A stretch of 43,479 bases of DNA. It comes from a virus. The stretch is from IMG/VR virus record IMGVR_UViG_3300044629_000619, positions 1 through 43,479 of that record, one strand, 5' to 3'. This document shows, piece after piece, positions 1 through 43,479 of this stretch (positions within the stretch are counted from its first letter, which is position 1; every line of letters begins with the position of its first letter). The position numbers and the translations under genes are program-made. Below the pieces are notes generated by a model. The model saw nothing but the letters and a program-made list of their open reading frames with translations, was not told the origin of the DNA and did not search any database.

Positions 1-63
1 CTCGTACACGCCCGCGTGGGCGACGACGGTCAACCGCTCCTCGACCACTCCCGAGGCTGGTAG
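1..63 (+). CDS. C-terminal end of small membrane protein (partial)
   Basis: The window opens inside a gene. The 20 codons before the TAG at 61-63 match, residue for residue, the end of the 86-residue membrane protein at 42373-42633. It is the truncated left copy produced by the terminal redundancy and not a separate gene; see the complete copy for the description. Confidence 0.85.
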   Translation, partial: LVHARVGDDGQPLLDHSRGW

Positions 64-65
64 CC

Positions 66-398
66 ATGTGGCGTTCATTCCTCGCATTCCTCGCCAGCCT
101 CGCGGCCGAGCCCGCCGCGATCGACCAGGAGCAGCCCCGCGCCGCTGCGGCCGTGGCCGTGGCCTACGCCGGGTTTGCGGTCGAGGCCCCCGCCCCTGCC
201 CCGACGCCGGCCCCCGGCAAGTGCTGTAGCGACTGCGGCGGACGCGGCTACATCGTCCACGGCGACGGCCACCGGACGCCCTGCCCGTGCCCGGCGTCGT
301 GCCCGTGCAAGAAGGGGGCCGGGTGCCCCGATGGCAAATGCGTTTCGGGGGCGTCGCCCGCGACTGCTTCACCGGCCAAGCCCACGGGCGGGAGGTGA
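66..398 (+). CDS. Cys-rich small protein with DnaJ-type zinc-finger-like motif
   Basis: 110 residues. Residues 1-20 are fairly hydrophobic (MWRSFLAFLASLAAEP) and could be a weak signal or membrane-association segment. An Ala/Pro-rich linker follows, then a cysteine cluster: CCSDCGGRG, then CPCP, SCPC, GC and KC, nine Cys in all. CxxCGGRG resembles one half of a DnaJ cysteine-rich repeat and would be expected to bind zinc. The rest of the DnaJ domain is absent, so chaperone function cannot be claimed. It starts 3 bp after the upstream membrane protein and lies at the end of the lysis block. A second, slightly different copy is at 42636-42968. Function unknown. Confidence 0.8.
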   Translation: MWRSFLAFLASLAAEPAAIDQEQPRAAAAVAVAYAGFAVEAPAPAPTPAPGKCCSDCGGRGYIVHGDGHRTPCPCPASCPCKKGAGCPDGKCVSGASPATASPAKPTGGR

Positions 399-400
399 CG

Positions 401-796
401 GTGGGCGACGCTCTCGACACGCTGACGCTTGAGGGGCTGCGGGCGACCGTCCGCGAGTTCATCGGGCCGTCGGGGGCCACGCTAGAGCACACTTGCGACG
501 TGATCGTCGATGAGATCTGCCGCCAGTGGCCGGAGCGAACCATGGCCGACTACGCCCGCAAGGTCGACTCCAACGCCATCGGCGGGAAGATCCTCGACGC
601 AATCCCGGTGATCACAGCCAGAGTCCGAGAGCAGATCGAGGCCCGGTGGGGCATCAAGCCTAGCCACACAGCGGCCCTCGACCTCGTGCTCCGCGGGTGC
701 GTGATCGAGTATGCGAACCTCTGGTTTGCGTCCGCCGAGAATCGGATCGCGATGAGGTCGATCATTGCGGTGGTGCGGCACGCGCGGCGAGCCTAG
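401..796 (+). CDS. Conserved hypothetical protein, 131 aa
   Basis: I place the start at GTG 401, five bases after a GGAGG at 391-395. A GTG at 395, overlapping the previous stop as GTGA, is the alternative. The protein (VGDALDTLTLEG...) is mostly helical in appearance with no membrane segment and no motif I recognise. It is certainly coding: in the second copy (42971-43366) about 20 of the differences are synonymous and only two residues change (N/A and I/L in DSNAIGGKILDAI). It closes the rightward late transcript. Its TAG at 794-796 interlocks with the stop of the leftward gene at 793-936 in a shared CTAG. Confidence 0.8.
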   Translation: MGDALDTLTLEGLRATVREFIGPSGATLEHTCDVIVDEICRQWPERTMADYARKVDSNAIGGKILDAIPVITARVREQIEARWGIKPSHTAALDLVLRGCVIEYANLWFASAENRIAMRSIIAVVRHARRA

Positions 797-936
797 CCGA
801 CCAACTGGCCGACGATCTTGATCGCGGCGTCAATGCCGCCGGCGATCGTCTGGGCGAGGTCGCTGTCGCTGCCGAGCTCCTGGCCGACGCGGACCCAGAG
901 CAGAGATTCCAACACCCGATCCCAAAGTTGTCGCAT
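793..936 (-). CDS. Small hypothetical protein, 47 aa
   Basis: Reading leftward, AAGGAGGG sits just before ATG (936-934) and the frame gives MRQLWDRVLESLLWVRVGQE..., ending at TAG (795-793). The strong ribosome-binding site, the conserved partial copy at 43363-43479 and the exact stop-to-stop interlock with the rightward gene (shared CTAG, 793-796) support a real gene. The product is small and probably helical; no family recognised. Confidence 0.7.
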   Translation of the reverse strand: MRQLWDRVLESLLWVRVGQELGSDSDLAQTIAGGIDAAIKIVGQLVG

Positions 937-1690: not shown

Positions 1691-2593
1691 TTAGGGGGGG
1701 GGGGGGCTTGTAGGGGATTGGAGAGGACGGGGCCGCACGCGCGACCGCGACGCCGCCACAAGGGCCGGGTCGATGTAAGAGAGGCGAGCGATTTGCGATC
1801 CCGGCCGGTGGCCGAGTTGCTCGGTGGCCGAGCCCTCCTGTTGAATCTCGCAGTCGGTCGCGGAAGAGCGACGCAGCCATTTCCACGTTCCTGAGCGGAT
1901 CCCGGCGAGGCGCACGAGCCGTTTGAACTGGGCGGTAAACGTCTCATGGCTCGCGGTCCATGGCGTGACGAGGTCGCGAGGATGGCCGACGAGCGACGCG
2001 GCCAGGGCCGTGAGCGTCTCGGGCGATAACTTCGGAACCACCACGCTACCCGTCTTCGACTGGCCGAATGCGACCGTCCCATCGGGCCGCACCTGTTCTA
2101 GTCGCAGCCGGCGGACTTGATCCTCCCAGCGGAGGCCCGCGTCCCACGCCACGCGGATCGCCAGATCCCACCAGGCGGATCGGCGGATGCCGCACGGGTG
2201 CCACCGTTGAAGCCGCTGGCAGGCGACGAGGAGTTGGTCGACCTCCTCTCGCGTCCAGGCGACCGGAGGTTTCCACGGCACGCGGACTGGCCGCACGCGG
2301 CGCGTTGGTAGTTCACAGCGGCCGTCGTCCGCCGCCGACCTCCACATAATGCAGACGTGATTCCGTTTTGACCGCACGGTATTGGGCGCGACGCCACTCG
2401 CGGCATAGTCGCGGATCCATTCCGACACGCTGGCCGCGTCGAGGTCCGTCAACGCAACAGGCCCGCCGGCCCACCGTTCAAACAGGCCGACAGAGATGGC
2501 GTATTGGCGCAGCGTCTCCGGCCGGCAGTCATGGAAGAGGCCGTAGTCGCGAACGTACTCGCCGAGCGTGGTCGGCCCGGAGGCGCGAAACAT
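1691..2593 (-). CDS. int: Tyrosine recombinase (phage integrase)
   Basis: 300 residues. N-terminal SAM-like/core-binding region about 1-105, catalytic domain about 110-275. Catalytic residues by pattern: R155 (AGLRWED), K180 (QSKTGS), R241 in KWLRR, H262 (QLGHR) and nucleophile Y273 (LSYID). The first position of the usual HxxR box is Lys (K238), also seen in the second recombinase of this genome. It faces left from attP (2717-2783), the classic arrangement for site-specific integration. The extreme C-terminus (SPPPP) is encoded by a run of 13 G (1694-1706 on the plus strand) directly before the stop, so the last few residues are sensitive to homopolymer error or slippage. Catalytic residues are unaffected. 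Confidence 0.92.
   Translation of the reverse strand: MFRASGPTTLGEYVRDYGLFHDCRPETLRQYAISVGLFERWAGGPVALTDLDAASVSEWIRDYAASGVAPNTVRSKRNHVCIMWRSAADDGRCELPTRRVRPVRVPWKPPVAWTREEVDQLLVACQRLQRWHPCGIRRSAWWDLAIRVAWDAGLRWEDQVRRLRLEQVRPDGTVAFGQSKTGSVVVPKLSPETLTALAASLVGHPRDLVTPWTASHETFTAQFKRLVRLAGIRSGTWKWLRRSSATDCEIQQEGSATEQLGHRPGSQIARLSYIDPALVAASRSRVRPRPLQSPTSPPPP
1694..1706. repeat. 13-nt G homopolymer at the integrase 3' end
   Basis: Thirteen consecutive G on the plus strand encode the terminal prolines of the integrase. Loss or gain of one base would change the last residues and the stop position only. It is the longest homopolymer I saw, and either a sequencing weak point or a slippage site. Confidence 0.8.
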
Positions 2594-2716: not shown

Positions 2717-2783
2717 CCTTCGGTTCGTGTAGAGCATCGGTCTACGGAACCGAAGGTTGAAGGTTCGAGCCCTTCCGGGTGTA
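2717..2783. other. attP: Probable attP: tRNA-Arg(ACG) 3' part within a dyad
   Basis: Bases 2730-2783 reproduce the 3' part of a tRNA: anticodon stem TCGGT/ACCGA (2737-2741/2749-2753) around loop CTACGGA with anticodon ACG at 2744-2746; variable AGGTT; T stem GAAGG/CCTTC around TTCGAGC (2759-2775); acceptor strand CGGGTGT plus discriminator A (2776-2783); no CCA. The 5' half of a tRNA is missing. Instead, CCTTCGGTTC (2717-2726) is the exact inverted copy of GAACCGAAGG (2747-2756), and the dyad continues inward as GTAGA/TCTAC around the 7-bp centre GCATCGG. Beside an integrase gene this is what a phage attachment core looks like. Further GAACC/GGTTC repeats follow at 2796-2811. Confidence 0.75.
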
Positions 2784-3173: not shown

Positions 3174-3304
3174 TTGCCTCGTGACGTTCATCGTCACCGT
3201 CGCGGTTTGCATGGAGCAGCCGCGGCGACGCAACACCAGGCGACGGATTGCCATGGCCGCGAATCGAGGAGCGACGGGCACCGCCGCAAAGCAAGGAGGC
3301 TCTC

Positions 3305-3664
3305 ATGTCCCACATATTTCGGGCGACGGTATCGGATGCACAACTCCGCGGGTGGCGGAGGGCGGGAGTGAAATACGAGTCGATCGCGAGCGCGACGGGG
3401 ATGAGCATCTCAGAAGTATCGCGCCGGCTACACACCGTCTACTGCGTTCCGCGGAGCCCCGACCCCTCGCAGGAAGAAATATTGCAGGCGTGCGCCGAGA
3501 TCCGGCGCGGCTGGTCGGAGGAGGAGCGCGAGCAGCGTTGCGTAACCAAGGCGGGCCGGTGGACTCCCACCGTCGTACCCGCATCCGTTTTGGGTTGTGC
3601 CAACGGCTGGCGGGCTGGCTTCGACGAACTGCCCGAGTCCATGCCCACCTGTGCGCGATCGTAA
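3305..3664 (+). CDS. Small HTH-like early protein, 119 aa
   Basis: AAGGAGG precedes ATG 3305. Residues about 10-50 (VSDAQLRGWRRAGVKYESIA, then GMSISEVSRRLHTVYCVP) look like a homeodomain-like helix-turn-helix of the kind that asks 'when does the cell respond' in many small phage regulators. The C-terminal half is less clear (EEILQACAEIRRGWSEEEREQ, then TPTVVP). First gene after the early promoter, hence possibly an early regulator. A frameshift into the next frame near 3600-3660 cannot be excluded, since coding signal continues there in the -1 frame. Confidence 0.65.
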   Translation: MSHIFRATVSDAQLRGWRRAGVKYESIASATGMSISEVSRRLHTVYCVPRSPDPSQEEILQACAEIRRGWSEEEREQRCVTKAGRWTPTVVPASVLGCANGWRAGFDELPESMPTCARS

Positions 3665-3966
3665 GGCTCTACGGCAGCCCGACTCGGGCGGGTGGGCAAT
3701 CGCTCCAGGGCGACACCTACGCCGCCCGTGCGGCTGCCGGGGATCGGACGTTGCTCCACGAGGCGCTCACGCTCTCGATCGACGAGCTCACGCTCATCCG
3801 CAACGAGTTGGAGGCCGAGATGGCTGCGGCACCGCCCACGGCGGCACCGCCAGGCAGCAAGGCCAAGGTCGACGAGATGGCACGCCGCGTGGAACGCGGC
3901 GACGCCCTGTTCATTGAAGGTGATTCCAAAGGAGCCGGCGACGGATCGCCGGACGTTCAAGGATGA
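3595..3966 (+). CDS. Hypothetical protein, start uncertain
   Basis: High-GC3 coding signal from about 3660 to the TGA at 3964-3966: SLQGDTYAARAAAGDRTLLHEALTLSIDELTLIRNELEAEM, an Ala/Pro linker, then a small motif KVDEMARRVERGDALFIEGD. No ATG exists in this frame; possible starts are TTG 3595 and TTG 3751, or it is the continuation of the previous gene by a frameshift. Predicted helical, no family recognised. Its last codons overlap the first CsrA-type hairpin (3935-3952), so that hairpin lies in coding sequence. Confidence 0.45.
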   Translation: MCQRLAGWLRRTARVHAHLCAIVRLYGSPTRAGGQSLQGDTYAARAAAGDRTLLHEALTLSIDELTLIRNELEAEMAAAPPTAAPPGSKAKVDEMARRVERGDALFIEGDSKGAGDGSPDVQG

Positions 3967-4016
3967 CGTTTGGGCGGTGGCGACGGATCGCCGCTGGCCC
4001 GGTTTTGGAGGTTGGA
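3935..4016 (+). promoter_or_regulatory. CsrA-type binding hairpins in the csrA leader
   Basis: Two hairpins with identical loops. Site 1: CCGGCG-ACGGAT-CGCCGG (3935-3952), six pairs. Site 2: 3975-3996, GGCG-ACGGAT-CGCC extended by four outer pairs (two G-U). Both place GGA in the hexaloop ANGGAN, the arrangement known for high-affinity CsrA/RsmE sites. Other GGA motifs follow: AAGGATG (3959-3965), the Shine-Dalgarno GGAGG (4007-4011) and GGATG overlapping the start (4014-4018). Seven GGA occur in about 85 nt. Occupancy would hide the csrA ribosome site, so autorepression is the natural inference. Confidence 0.7.
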
Positions 4017-4213
4017 TGCTGGTGCTGAGCCGGAAAGAGGGTGAGTCGATCGTGGTGCCCGAGCACCGTATCGAGATCGTCGTACGTCAAATCGACGGCG
4101 ATCGCGTGCGGATCGGAATCAAGGCCCCAGATGACACCGACATCTACCGCTCCGAGCTCTGGCAGGAGCTCTGTTTTGAGGAATTTTCCAAAGGCAAAGG
4201 AGAGAGGCAATGA
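4016..4213 (+). CDS. csrA: CsrA-family RNA-binding translational regulator
   Basis: 65 residues, the full size of CsrA. It aligns with the family end to end: MLVLSRKEGESIVV, then IEIVVRQIDGDRVRIGIKAP, then DTDIYRSELWQELC. The RNA-contact residues L4, R6 and the Arg of IYRSEL (R44 in E. coli numbering) are present, so it should bind GGA-containing RNA hairpins as a dimer. ATG 4016 has GGAGG four bases upstream. Its stop overlaps the ATG of the Sak4-like gene (ATGA), linking it to the replication/recombination operon. The leader carries two ANGGAN hairpins, suggesting autoregulation. It may also retune host mRNAs or other phage mRNAs. Identification is secure; targets are inference. Confidence 0.93.
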   Translation: MLVLSRKEGESIVVPEHRIEIVVRQIDGDRVRIGIKAPDDTDIYRSELWQELCFEEFSKGKGERQ

Positions 4214-5175
4214 GTCTGAACATCACGAGAGGCAAGCAGGCTACCGCGTCGCGCGTCGCCATCTACGGAACCGAGGGGATCGGCAAGTCGACGCTCGGGG
4301 CACAGTTTCCGAAACCGCTGATCCTCGACACTGAGGAGGGGACGCACCACCTCGACGTGGCTCGCGTGTCGTGCCACGACTGGGTGACGCTAGAGGGGGC
4401 GATGCTCGAACTGGGCCGCGACCGCCAAGGATTCGAGACGGTGGTGATCGACTCGGCCGATTGGGCCGAGAGGCATCTCATCGACCACCTGCTCCGCAAG
4501 AGCGGCAAGCGGTCGATTGAGGATTTCGGTTTCGGCAAGGGCTACACCATGCTCGCCGAATCGTTCACCAAACTCCTAGCGGCTGCCGACGCCCTGGTCC
4601 GCACCGGCCTCCATGTGGTGTTCGTCGCCCATTCGCAGGTGAAGCGGACTAGTCCGCCCGATCAAGAGGAGGGCTACGACCGCTACGAGCTCAAGCTCAC
4701 GAAGCAGACCGGGCCGCTCCTTCGCGAGTGGGCCGACGCCCTGCTCTTCTGCAACTACCGCCTCAAAGTCGTCGAGGGTGCCGACGGCCGCATGAAGGCC
4801 CGCGGCGGTAAGGAGCGCCTCGTCTACGCCGAGCGGTCGGCGGCGTGGGACGCCAAAAACCGCTACGGCCTGGCGGCCGAGCTCCCGATGTCGATCGACA
4901 GTCTCGCGCCGCTGTTTGCCGGCACGCCGGCCCCGGCGGCACCGAAGCCGCAAGGCAAGTCGCTGGTCGACACCGTCCGCGACACGATCGCGGCCGCCAC
5001 GACGGTCAAGAAACTCGGCGCAGTGGTGACGCGGCTCGACACGCTGCTCTCCGAGGGCAAGGTCAGCGGCGACGAATGGTCGACGCTCACCGATCTCGCC
5101 AACGCTCGACACGCCGAGATCGACCCGCCGACCGGTGCCCCGTGGGAGAAGGAGACTAGCGATGCCGTGGCATAG
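4210..5175 (+). CDS. Sak4-like RecA-fold ATPase (single-strand annealing/recombination)
   Basis: 321 residues. Walker A GTEGIGKST (20-28) and Walker B FETVVIDSAD (D81) belong to the phage AAA/RecA-like ATPases annotated as Sak4 or 'ATP-binding protein'. The core runs to about 235; the C-terminus is a Pro/Ala linker plus a helical tail. Sak4 proteins act with phage SSB in homologous recombination and replication restart; an SSB-like protein is two genes downstream (5386-5862), which supports the assignment. Translationally coupled to csrA by ATGA. A DNA-helicase-loader role is the alternative. Confidence 0.8.
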   Translation: MSLNITRGKQATASRVAIYGTEGIGKSTLGAQFPKPLILDTEEGTHHLDVARVSCHDWVTLEGAMLELGRDRQGFETVVIDSADWAERHLIDHLLRKSGKRSIEDFGFGKGYTMLAESFTKLLAAADALVRTGLHVVFVAHSQVKRTSPPDQEEGYDRYELKLTKQTGPLLREWADALLFCNYRLKVVEGADGRMKARGGKERLVYAERSAAWDAKNRYGLAAELPMSIDSLAPLFAGTPAPAAPKPQGKSLVDTVRDTIAAATTVKKLGAVVTRLDTLLSEGKVSGDEWSTLTDLANARHAEIDPPTGAPWEKETSDAVA

Positions 5176-5862: not shown

Positions 5863-6040
5863 GGCGACGTTCACGGGCGGGCCGCTCGACGGCACGACCT
5901 ACAAGCGGACAGGCAAGCGGTTCCCAACGCGGCTCCTCATGCCGGTGATGGGGCGGACGCATCTGTATTTGGCGATCTACGACGGCCGGCGCGTGACGTA
6001 CAAGCACGCGCGGGCGATGACGGTGGAGGCGGTGGCGTGA
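5846..6040 (+). CDS. Small hypothetical protein, 64 aa
   Basis: ATG 5846 overlaps the end of the SSB-like gene in another frame, with AAGGAGAA upstream. MTFPFEATFTGGPLDGTTYK then VMGRTHLYLAIYDGRRVTYK looks like a compact beta-rich domain; 'GGPLDG' resembles a common small phage/bacterial protein family of unknown role. GTGA overlap with the next gene. Confidence 0.65.
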   Translation: MTFPFEATFTGGPLDGTTYKRTGKRFPTRLLMPVMGRTHLYLAIYDGRRVTYKHARAMTVEAVA

Positions 6041-6864
6041 AGAAACCAGCGATCATGACGTTTGCTCGCATCGCCAAGGCGTACCTCGCCGAGAGGATCG
6101 TCTCGCGGCACTACGCCGAGAACGTGAACCGCATAGCGGCTAGGTGCGGCGAGGTGAGCGTCGAGCGAGTCAACGCCTACCTCCGCGGCATCGCCGCCGA
6201 GAAGCAGTCGACGACCGTTCGGTCGGAACGCACGATCCTGCTTACGCTGTATTGCTGGGCATTCCAGACGGGCATGATCGACCAGGCCCCGCGTGGCGTG
6301 ATGCGGGTCAAGGCGAGAAAGCGGCCTACTCAGGCGTGGACGATCGCCCAACTCAAGTCGCTCGTCGAGGCCACGAAGAAGCACGACGGCCGCCGGCTGC
6401 GGTCGGGTGCCGACCTCGGCCAGTTTCTCCGGTGCTGGGTGCTGCTCGCCTACGAGTGCGGCGCCCGGTTCGGCGACGTGATGGCATTCACGCGCGACAA
6501 CGTCTCCGGCGACACGCTCGCATGGACGCAATCGAAGACCGGCGATCCGCTCACGCGACCTCTCACGCCGGCCTGCCTCACGGCCATCGACGCCATGCTC
6601 GCGACATCTCCCGACGGCCGGATCCTCGGGTGGGCGTGCGGTCGGCGTATGGCGATGCGGTGGATGCGTGAACTGCTCGACGGCCAGGGCCTCGGCGGCT
6701 CGTCGAAGTGGTTGCGCCGCTCGGGGGCCACACATTGCGAGATGGCGCAGGCGGGAGCGGGGCGGCTCCACCTCGGGCACCGCTCGCCTGCACTTTTCGA
6801 GGCCGCCTATTGCGATTGGGGCCAGTTGCGAACGAAGACGCCGCGGACGCCGGCGTTGGTCTAA
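6037..6864 (+). CDS. Second tyrosine recombinase (XerC/integrase type)
   Basis: 275 residues. Core-binding domain about 5-95, catalytic domain 100-260. Residues by pattern: R144 (CGARFGD), K167 (QSKTGD), R227 in KWLRR, H248 (HLGHR) and Y258 (AAYCDW). Like the first integrase it has Lys at the HxxR box, and the two share KWLRRS(S/G)AT(D/H)CE, so they are from one lineage. It is buried in the early/replication operon (GTGA start overlap at 6037), away from attP, so it is unlikely to be a simple second integrase. Dimer resolution, inversion or excision are options. Start GTG 6037; ATG 6055 is an alternative. Confidence 0.85.
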   Translation: MKKPAIMTFARIAKAYLAERIVSRHYAENVNRIAARCGEVSVERVNAYLRGIAAEKQSTTVRSERTILLTLYCWAFQTGMIDQAPRGVMRVKARKRPTQAWTIAQLKSLVEATKKHDGRRLRSGADLGQFLRCWVLLAYECGARFGDVMAFTRDNVSGDTLAWTQSKTGDPLTRPLTPACLTAIDAMLATSPDGRILGWACGRRMAMRWMRELLDGQGLGGSSKWLRRSGATHCEMAQAGAGRLHLGHRSPALFEAAYCDWGQLRTKTPRTPALV

Positions 6865-42372: not shown

Positions 42373-42633
42373 ATGACGCTGACCAATCGCCAACTCGTGA
42401 TTCTCTGCATTGCTTGCATGGCCGCCGGGTGGTGGCTGTCGAGCTCGCCGGCCTCGCCGGTCAACCCGAGGCCGCAGCCCGACCGCCCTGTTCTTCGGTG
42501 GATCGCCCGCGCCGCCAAGAGCTTCCTATGGATCGCCCTCGTGGCCGAAAAGCCGCCTGAGGAATCGCACCTCGTACACGCCCGCGTGGGCGACGACGGT
42601 CAACCGCTCCTCGACCACTCCCGAGGCTGGTAG
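42373..42633 (+). CDS. Small membrane protein, 86 aa
   Basis: Starts directly after the peptidase stop. Membrane helix LVILCIACMAAGWWLSSSPA (about 8-27), Pro-rich stretch, second amphipathic part (LRWIARAAKSFLWIALVAEK), and an acidic end (HARVGDDGQPLLDHSRGW). One or two spans; candidate holin for the peptidase. Its last 21 codons (with the stop) are repeated at bases 1-63. Confidence 0.65.
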   Translation: MTLTNRQLVILCIACMAAGWWLSSSPASPVNPRPQPDRPVLRWIARAAKSFLWIALVAEKPPEESHLVHARVGDDGQPLLDHSRGW

Positions 42634-42635
42634 CC

Positions 42636-42968
42636 ATGTGGCGTTCATTCCTCGCATTCCTCGCCAGCCTCGCGGCCGAGCCCGCCGCGATCGACCAAGA
42701 GCAGCCCCGCGCCGCTGCGGCCGTGGCCGTGGCCTACGCCGGCTTTGCGGTCGAGGCCCCCGCCCCTGCCCCGACGCCGGCCCCCGGCAAGTGCTGTAGC
42801 GACTGCGGCGGACGCGGCTATGTCGTCCACGGCGACGGCCACCGGACGCCGTGCCCGTGCCCGCCGTCGTGCCCGTGCAAGAAGGGGACCGGGTGCCCCG
42901 ATGGCAAATGCGTTTCGGGGGCGTCGCCCGCGACTGCTTCACCGGCCAAGCCCACGGGCGGGAGGTGA
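42636..42968 (+). CDS. Cys-rich small protein, second copy
   Basis: Same 110-residue protein as 66-398 with three changes: I to V in GYIVHG, A to P in CPAS, A to T in KKGAGC. All nine cysteines are kept, supporting a structural, metal-binding role. This copy sits in its complete context after the membrane protein, with 2 bp between stop and start. Confidence 0.8.
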   Translation: MWRSFLAFLASLAAEPAAIDQEQPRAAAAVAVAYAGFAVEAPAPAPTPAPGKCCSDCGGRGYVVHGDGHRTPCPCPPSCPCKKGTGCPDGKCVSGASPATASPAKPTGGR

Positions 42969-42970
42969 CG

Positions 42971-43366
42971 GTGGGCGACGCTCTCGACACGCTGACGCTG
43001 GAGGGGCTGCGGGCGACCGTCCGCGAGTTCATCGGGCCGTCGGGTGCCACCCTGGAGCACACCTGCGACGTGATCGTCGATGAGATTTGCCGGCAGTGGC
43101 CGGAGCGGACGATGGCCGACTACGCTCGCAAGGTCGACTCCGCCGCTATCGGCGGGAAGATCCTCGACGCGCTGCCGGTGATCACGGCCAGGGTCCGCGA
43201 GCAGATCGAGGCCCGGTGGGGGATCAAGCCTAGCCACACAGCGGCCCTCGACCTCGTGCTCCGCGGGTGCGTGATCGAGTATGCGAACCTCTGGTTTGCG
43301 TCCGCCGAGAATCGGATCGCGATGAGGTCGATCATCGCGGTGGTGCGGCACGCTCGGCGAGCCTAG
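42971..43366 (+). CDS. Conserved hypothetical protein, second copy
   Basis: Copy of the 131-residue protein at 401-796, start GTG with GGAGG five bases before. It differs at two residues (N to A, I to L) despite some 20 nucleotide changes, most of them synonymous: clear purifying selection on an unknown protein. Confidence 0.8.
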   Translation: MGDALDTLTLEGLRATVREFIGPSGATLEHTCDVIVDEICRQWPERTMADYARKVDSAAIGGKILDALPVITARVREQIEARWGIKPSHTAALDLVLRGCVIEYANLWFASAENRIAMRSIIAVVRHARRA

Positions 43367-43479
43367 CCGACCAACTGGCCGACGATCTTGATCGCGGCGT
43401 CGATGCCGCCGGCGATCGTCTGGGCGAGGTCGCTGTCGCTGCCGAGCTCCTGGCCGACGCGGACCCAGAGCAAAGATTC
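43363..43479 (-). CDS. Small hypothetical protein, second copy (partial)
   Basis: C-terminal 38 codons plus stop of the leftward 47-residue protein seen complete at 793-936; the window ends before its start codon. The CTAG stop interlock (43363-43366) with the rightward gene is preserved. Confidence 0.65.
   Translation of the reverse strand, partial: ESLLWVRVGQELGSDSDLAQTIAGGIDAAIKIVGQLVG

What the first reader, a model, noticed from the sequence alone, without database searches (positions are those of the whole stretch)
3935..4213. Phage CsrA with two ANGGAN hexaloop hairpins in its own leader
The gene at 4016-4213 is a full-length CsrA with L4, R6 and the R44 equivalent. Just upstream, two hairpins (3935-3952 and 3975-3996) present the identical loop ACGGAT, matching the ANGGAN loop of known high-affinity CsrA sites. 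Further GGA motifs overlap the Shine-Dalgarno and start codon. This looks like a self-contained autoregulated RNA switch. It may control the coupled recombination operon, compete with host CsrA, or reprogramme host mRNAs. Site 1 lies inside the preceding gene.
Basis: partly seen in the sequence, partly recalled or inferred. Interest (0 to 1): 0.82.

Follow-up and report, generated by a model that had tools for sequence, protein, structure and literature searches.

The report
Phage CsrA with self-binding RNA leader
A virus of an unidentified bacterium carries its own copy of the RNA-binding regulator CsrA, and the messenger RNA in front of that gene holds four evolutionarily preserved CsrA docking sites, so the protein very probably switches off its own production and that of the DNA-recombination gene translated right after it.

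Summary
csrA (4016-4213) has the residues needed for RNA binding. Two hairpins with loop ACGGAU sit at 3935-3952 and 3975-3996. They are the only ANGGAN hairpins with stems of 5 bp or more on either strand of the 43.5-kb window.

In all 24 distinct leaders from related phages with the same gene order (upstream gene - csrA - sak4), hairpin 2 and the GGA sites are kept; hairpin 1 is intact in 21. Loop bases A, G, G, A are invariant, both Ns vary, stems show some compensatory changes, and GGA is always on the mRNA strand. A third A-N-GGA site lies between the hairpins and a fourth GGA is in the Shine-Dalgarno. Spacing is fixed inside two pairs (15-16 and 19-24 nt) and looser between them, as expected if two CsrA dimers each bridge one pair.

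Relatives joining the same upstream gene directly to sak4 lack the hairpins. Another branch without adjacent csrA keeps such a hairpin before sak4.

Best reading: translational autorepression of csrA, coupled to Sak4. No binding was tested; the host is unknown. It resembles the four-site csrA leader of E. coli: a new variant of a known kind.

The parts
4016..4213 (+). csrA, 65 aa; L4, R6 and R45 (= E. coli R44) present
   Evidence: PF02599 6.3e-20; invariant L4, R6, R45 in A1; PDB profile hits incl. RsmE-RNA 2jpp, E 1.7e-11
3935..3952 (+). Hairpin 1, loop ACGGAU 3941-3946, inside the 3' end of the upstream gene
3959..3964 (+). Middle A-N-GGA-N site AAGGAU, aligned in all 24 leaders; unpaired or in a weak hairpin
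3975..3996 (+). Hairpin 2, loop ACGGAU 3983-3988, in the noncoding gap before csrA
4007..4011 (+). Shine-Dalgarno GGAGG, the fourth GGA site, 19 nt after the GGA of hairpin 2
4014..4016 (+). GGA overlapping the csrA start codon (also in L004; not conserved in the other relatives)
3883..3901 (+). Possible extra site: 8-bp hairpin with a GGA triloop in the upstream gene; GGA kept in L003/L004 (with a compensated closing pair in L004), lost in L005/L006
3145..3966 (+). Open frame whose 3' part is the upstream gene (homologous in relatives, no Pfam match); true start not fixed; its C-terminal tail carries hairpin 1 only where csrA follows
4210..5175 (+). sak4-like single-strand annealing/recombination ATPase; ATGA overlap with the csrA stop
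   Evidence: phrog_124 2.5e-45; PF13479; overlap

Best explanation
The csrA leader is a multi-site CsrA target that gives feedback control. A phage CsrA dimer docks on the loop of hairpin 2 and swings its second RNA-binding face onto the GGA of the Shine-Dalgarno 19 nt downstream, blocking ribosome entry. A second dimer bridges hairpin 1 and the middle A-N-GGA site. When free CsrA is high, csrA translation is shut off, and sak4, whose start overlaps the csrA stop, is shut down with it through translational coupling. When CsrA is low or drawn off by other RNAs, csrA and sak4 are made. Shown here: the protein family, the sites, their strand, spacing and conservation, and the gene overlap. Inferred: binding, repression and coupling. 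Host CsrA may use the same sites.
For: Only two ANGGAN hairpins with stems of 5 bp or more exist in the window, both in this leader. In 17 leaders of this gene order, hairpins with stems of 6 bp or more occur at 12.7 per kb in the leader against 0.009 per kb elsewhere, 27 sense against 0 antisense. In 24 distinct leaders the loop bases A, G, G, A are invariant at all three upstream sites while both N positions vary: C/T/G/A at the second, T/C/G at the sixth, matching the ANGGAN recognised by RsmE/CsrA (PMC7652899). GGA gaps are 15-16 nt (hairpin 1 to middle) and 19-24 nt (hairpin 2 to SD), against 20-27 between the pairs, in 18 of 18. CsrA bridges sites 10-63 nt apart, best above 18, and glgC uses the same hairpin-plus-SD layout. 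Hairpin 1 covaries: 12 cells changed on both sides, 0 of 500 shuffles; hairpin 2 more weakly, 5 cells, 1 of 500. Relatives with the upstream gene joined directly to sak4 have no hairpin. The csrA stop overlaps the sak4 start in the closest genomes.
Against: No binding or expression data. SELEX ligands mostly had stems of 4 bp or fewer, so 8-14 bp stems may not be ideal. Hairpin 1 competes with long-range pairing in the window's own sequence and lies in coding sequence, so part of its conservation may be protein-driven. Hairpin 1 has a mismatch in L005/L006 and in L041. Covariation of hairpin 2 is modest and the sequences are related. A relative branch has a similar hairpin before sak4 with no csrA on the record, so autoregulation is not the only possible use.
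Confidence: 0.72

Rival explanations
1. The hairpins are primarily targets of the host's CsrA: the phage recombination operon reads the host's metabolic state, and phage csrA is an add-on that reinforces or replaces host control.
For: Relatives without adjacent csrA (L044-L054, L069, L094; L046; L051) keep an ANGGAN hairpin about 69-86 nt before sak4; the 30-kb records behind L053 and L069 have no csrA. Host genera of csrA-bearing phages usually have their own CsrA (PMC8450108).
Against: With the same upstream gene, hairpins are present only where csrA follows. Those csrA-less records may be incomplete. The host is unknown, so whether it has CsrA is unknown.
Confidence: 0.15
2. The leader works as a decoy (CsrB/RsmZ-like sponge) that titrates host or phage CsrA, rather than as an operator for its own translation.
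For: Several GGA loops close together: 5 in the 200 nt before window csrA against 0.43 expected (0/400 shuffles), 2-4 in related sak4 leaders. GGA-loop hairpins upstream of sak4 run at 4.75 per kb sense against 0.60 antisense.
Against: Only 4-5 sites, fewer than the roughly 18 of CsrB. The last site is the Shine-Dalgarno at a fixed 19-24 nt from hairpin 2, which a decoy does not need. No Rfam match to Csr/Rsm RNAs.
Confidence: 0.1
3. The palindromes are DNA operator or terminator elements, or by-products of coding constraint, with no CsrA role.
For: Palindromic GC-rich stems; hairpin 1 lies in coding sequence (DGS codons); hairpin 2 is followed by TTTT in the window.
Against: GGA is always on the mRNA strand (27 to 0). 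Stem sequence changes while pairing and the A-N-GGA loop stay. The T run is not kept in relatives. Hairpin 2 is noncoding. Spacing to the Shine-Dalgarno is fixed.
Confidence: 0.03

Closest known systems
E. coli csrA autoregulatory leader (four CsrA sites, one overlapping the SD; reviewed in PMC7652899)
   Same: Four GGA sites upstream of csrA with one in the Shine-Dalgarno; predicted translational autorepression.
   Different: Phage-borne; sites form two fixed-spacing pairs with two strong hexaloop hairpins; hairpin 1 lies in the preceding gene; coupled to a recombination gene.
E. coli glgC leader (hairpin site tethering CsrA to the SD; PMC7652899)
   Same: High-affinity hairpin just upstream plus an SD site, within bridging distance.
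   Different: The target gene here encodes the regulator itself; two hairpins.
Phage-encoded CsrA/RsmA (PMC7366521, PMC8450108; e.g. Pseudomonas phage RsmM)
   Same: Complete CsrA carried by a tailed phage.
   Different: About 48% identical or less to those in named phage records; those papers report presence of the gene; no autoregulatory leader was found in the passages read and searches made here. Other phage csrA genes examined here lack ANGGAN hairpins with stems of 5 bp or more.
CsrB / RsmZ decoy RNAs
   Same: ANGGAN/GGA loops in series.
   Different: Few sites, in an mRNA leader ending at a ribosome-binding site; no Rfam match.

Membership tests
CsrA/RsmA protein family | PF02599 domain above the curated cut-off | tested here: met
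   71.3 bits, cut-off 27
CsrA/RsmA protein family | RNA-contact residues L4, R6, R44 | tested here: met
   L4, R6, R45 invariant in 10 homologues
CsrA/RsmA protein family | Intertwined homodimer fold | tested here: inconclusive
   Monomer model pLDDT 71.8; the best Foldseek hits are CsrA/RsmE chains, TM about 0.5; dimer not modelled
CsrA/RsmA protein family | Binds GGA-loop RNA | not testable with these tools
   needs gel shift or ITC
CsrA-autorepressed leader | ANGGAN hexaloop hairpin(s) upstream of the gene | tested here: met
   two in the window; hairpin 2 in 24/24 leaders
CsrA-autorepressed leader | GGA site overlapping the Shine-Dalgarno within bridging distance | tested here: met
   GGAGG 19 nt from the hairpin-2 GGA; 19-24 nt in 18/18
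CsrA-autorepressed leader | CsrA lowers translation of its own mRNA | not testable with these tools
   reporter assay needed
CsrB/RsmZ decoy RNA | Independent noncoding RNA with many GGA hairpins | tested here: not met
   4-5 sites in an mRNA leader, partly coding; no Rfam match

The most novel reading that the evidence does not exclude
A lineage of phages places its recombination operon under Csr control through GGA-hairpin arrays. Some members carry their own csrA between array and sak4 as a closed feedback loop; others keep the array without csrA and depend on, or titrate, host CsrA. The phage thus swaps host for self control of the same RNA target.
Probability: 0.3. Interest if true: 0.72.

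Novelty: new variant of a known kind. Interest (0 to 1): 0.55.

Why it matters
Phage csrA genes have been catalogued, but why phages keep them is open; proposals include repression of host CRISPR-Cas (PMC8450108) and fitness of mobile elements (PMC7366521). Here the phage's own genome names its best candidate target: the csrA leader itself, coupled to a Sak4 recombinase. The site set is compact, conserved and testable in E. coli with two plasmids. The fixed-spacing pairs also offer a natural series for testing how CsrA dimers bridge sites.

Tried and rejected
Rarity as evidence: an 18-mer scan of IMG/VR for the hairpin-1 class gave 66 loci against 64 for a GCA-loop control, so the motif by itself is not informative; 4 of the 66 and 0 of the 64 lie beside csrA or sak4. 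Terminator reading: the T run after hairpin 2 is not conserved. DNA-operator reading: strand-specific GGA and varying stems argue against it. Rfam: no Csr/Rsm RNA. Host search: genome contigs with the Sak4 profile gave mostly distant Firmicutes hits and one myxococcal MAG, 47% identity or less; the genome search refuses relatives of a virus record; terminase and Sak4 in known phages are distant; no host could be assigned. The AlphaFold monomer model is mediocre and adds little beyond sequence.

Full report
WHAT IS THERE. The window is a tailed-phage record from IMG/VR. Its last 909 nt repeat its first 909 nt with 31 mismatches, so it is probably close to a complete genome of about 42.6 kb. csrA at 4016-4213 encodes 65 aa (PF02599, 71.3 bits). 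L4, R6 and R45 (the R44 equivalent, shifted by one inserted residue) are invariant in ten relatives. sak4, a phrog_124 recombination ATPase, starts at 4210 inside the csrA stop (ATGA).

THE HAIRPINS. In the whole window, both strands, they are the only ANGGAN hairpins with a perfect stem of 5 bp or more. None of 20,000 dinucleotide-preserving shuffles of the 125-nt leader holds two with 6 bp or more. Hairpin 2 folds in every segment tested. Hairpin 1 folds in the leader alone (0.99) but loses to long-range pairing when 40-60 nt of csrA are added (0.00-0.18), although it folds in many relatives. A third A-N-GGA site (3959-3964) and the GGA of the Shine-Dalgarno (4007-4009) complete a set of four.

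CONSERVATION. Scans of viral contigs with CsrA and Sak4 gave 24 distinct leaders with the order upstream gene - csrA - sak4. CsrA identity to the window goes down to 34%. All 24 keep hairpin 2, the middle site and a GGA at the Shine-Dalgarno. Hairpin 1 is kept in all, with one stem mismatch in L005, L006 and L041. At the three upstream sites the bases A, G, G, A never change, while the second and sixth loop positions do. That is the specificity described for RsmE/CsrA (PMC7652899). GGA is always on the mRNA strand: 27 sense against 0 antisense hairpins in 17 leaders, 12.7 per kb against 0.009 per kb in the rest of the same loci. Pair counting supports the stems: hairpin 1 has 12 cells changed on both sides (0 of 500 shuffles), hairpin 2 has 5 (1 of 500). 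These counts come from related sequences and hairpin 1 is in coding sequence, so the covariation is supportive, not decisive.

SPACING. Between the GGA triplets the gap is 15-16 nt (hairpin 1 to middle site) and 19-24 nt (hairpin 2 to Shine-Dalgarno, mostly 19) in 18 of 18 leaders, whereas the gap joining the two pairs varies from 20 to 27. The first gap stays constant even though the upstream stop codon has moved across the middle site between sub-groups. This looks like two dimers, each bridging one pair; CsrA bridges 10-63 nt with an optimum above 18.

NATURAL EXPERIMENTS. Where the same upstream gene abuts sak4 with no csrA between (L070, L072-L079, L084, L085, L091-L093, L095, L099), the hairpins are absent and the upstream protein lacks the tail that carries hairpin 1. 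A second csrA arrangement (csrA about 390 nt before sak4: L080, L089, L098, L100, L107, L110) has a hairpin with the same loop at about -90 to -98 and compensatory stem changes, often followed by a GGA-triloop hairpin. A third (L047, L060, L068, L096) puts the Shine-Dalgarno itself in a short ANGGAG loop. In a fourth branch with no adjacent csrA (L044-L054, L069, L094, L046, L051), an ANGGAN hairpin stands about 69-86 nt before sak4, and no csrA was found on the records tested, two of them 30 kb long. Unrelated phage csrA genes (L007-L035) have no such hairpins with stems of 5 bp or more.

MECHANISM. Shown: sites, strand, spacing, conservation, gene overlap. Inferred: docking on hairpin 2 and bridging to the Shine-Dalgarno represses csrA, and sak4 falls with it by coupling. 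The logic matches E. coli csrA (four leader sites, one at the SD), glgC and the coupled idlP-iraD pair. Coupling is best supported in the five closest genomes and the L061/L208 groups, where stop and start overlap or lie within a few nt; in the L041/L088 group csrA runs 16 nt past the aligned sak4 start.

WHAT IS KNOWN. Phage csrA genes are described (PMC7366521; PMC8450108). The searches of the held library found no account of an autoregulatory leader of a phage csrA. Most subscription journals and all bioRxiv-only preprints are outside that library.

LIMITS. No binding data, no host, no transcript map. Whether phage or host CsrA is the main ligand cannot be told from sequence.

Noticed in passing
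window 3239-3252: A weaker third ANGGAN hairpin (GGCG-ACGGAT-TGCC, 4 bp) about 50 nt upstream of the small gene at 3305; kept in L003-L006, with loop ACGGAC in L005/L006. Possible second CsrA target.
   Followed up: partly
window 1-909 and 42571-43479: The two ends repeat each other over 909 nt with 31 mismatches, suggesting a near-complete circular or permuted genome assembled with strain variation.
   Followed up: partly
window 2723-2783: Borderline tRNA-like match (RF00005, 29 bits, Arg ACG-type anticodon by eye, not found by ARAGORN) near the reverse-strand integrase 1691-2593; a likely attP and a handle for finding the host.
   Followed up: no
window 1691-2593 (-) and 6037-6864 (+): Two different integrase-like tyrosine recombinases in one phage (phrog_1 hits).
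   Followed up: no
L044, L046, L051, L055, L057, L067: the 200 nt before sak4: GGA-rich stretch (10-13 GGA against 0-3 TCC) with 2-4 GGA in hairpin loops inside the 3' end of a small membrane-protein gene without adjacent csrA; resembles a small CsrA decoy.
   Followed up: partly
L088, L201, L206 at about +14 of csrA: An extra ACGGAA hexaloop hairpin inside the first codons of csrA.
   Followed up: no
L072 4400-4480 and L073-L075, L091: GGA-triloop hairpin with an 11-bp perfect stem (ccgccggcggt-GGA-accgccggcgg) about 540 nt before sak4, in phages whose divergent csrA lies about 1 kb upstream of sak4.
   Followed up: no
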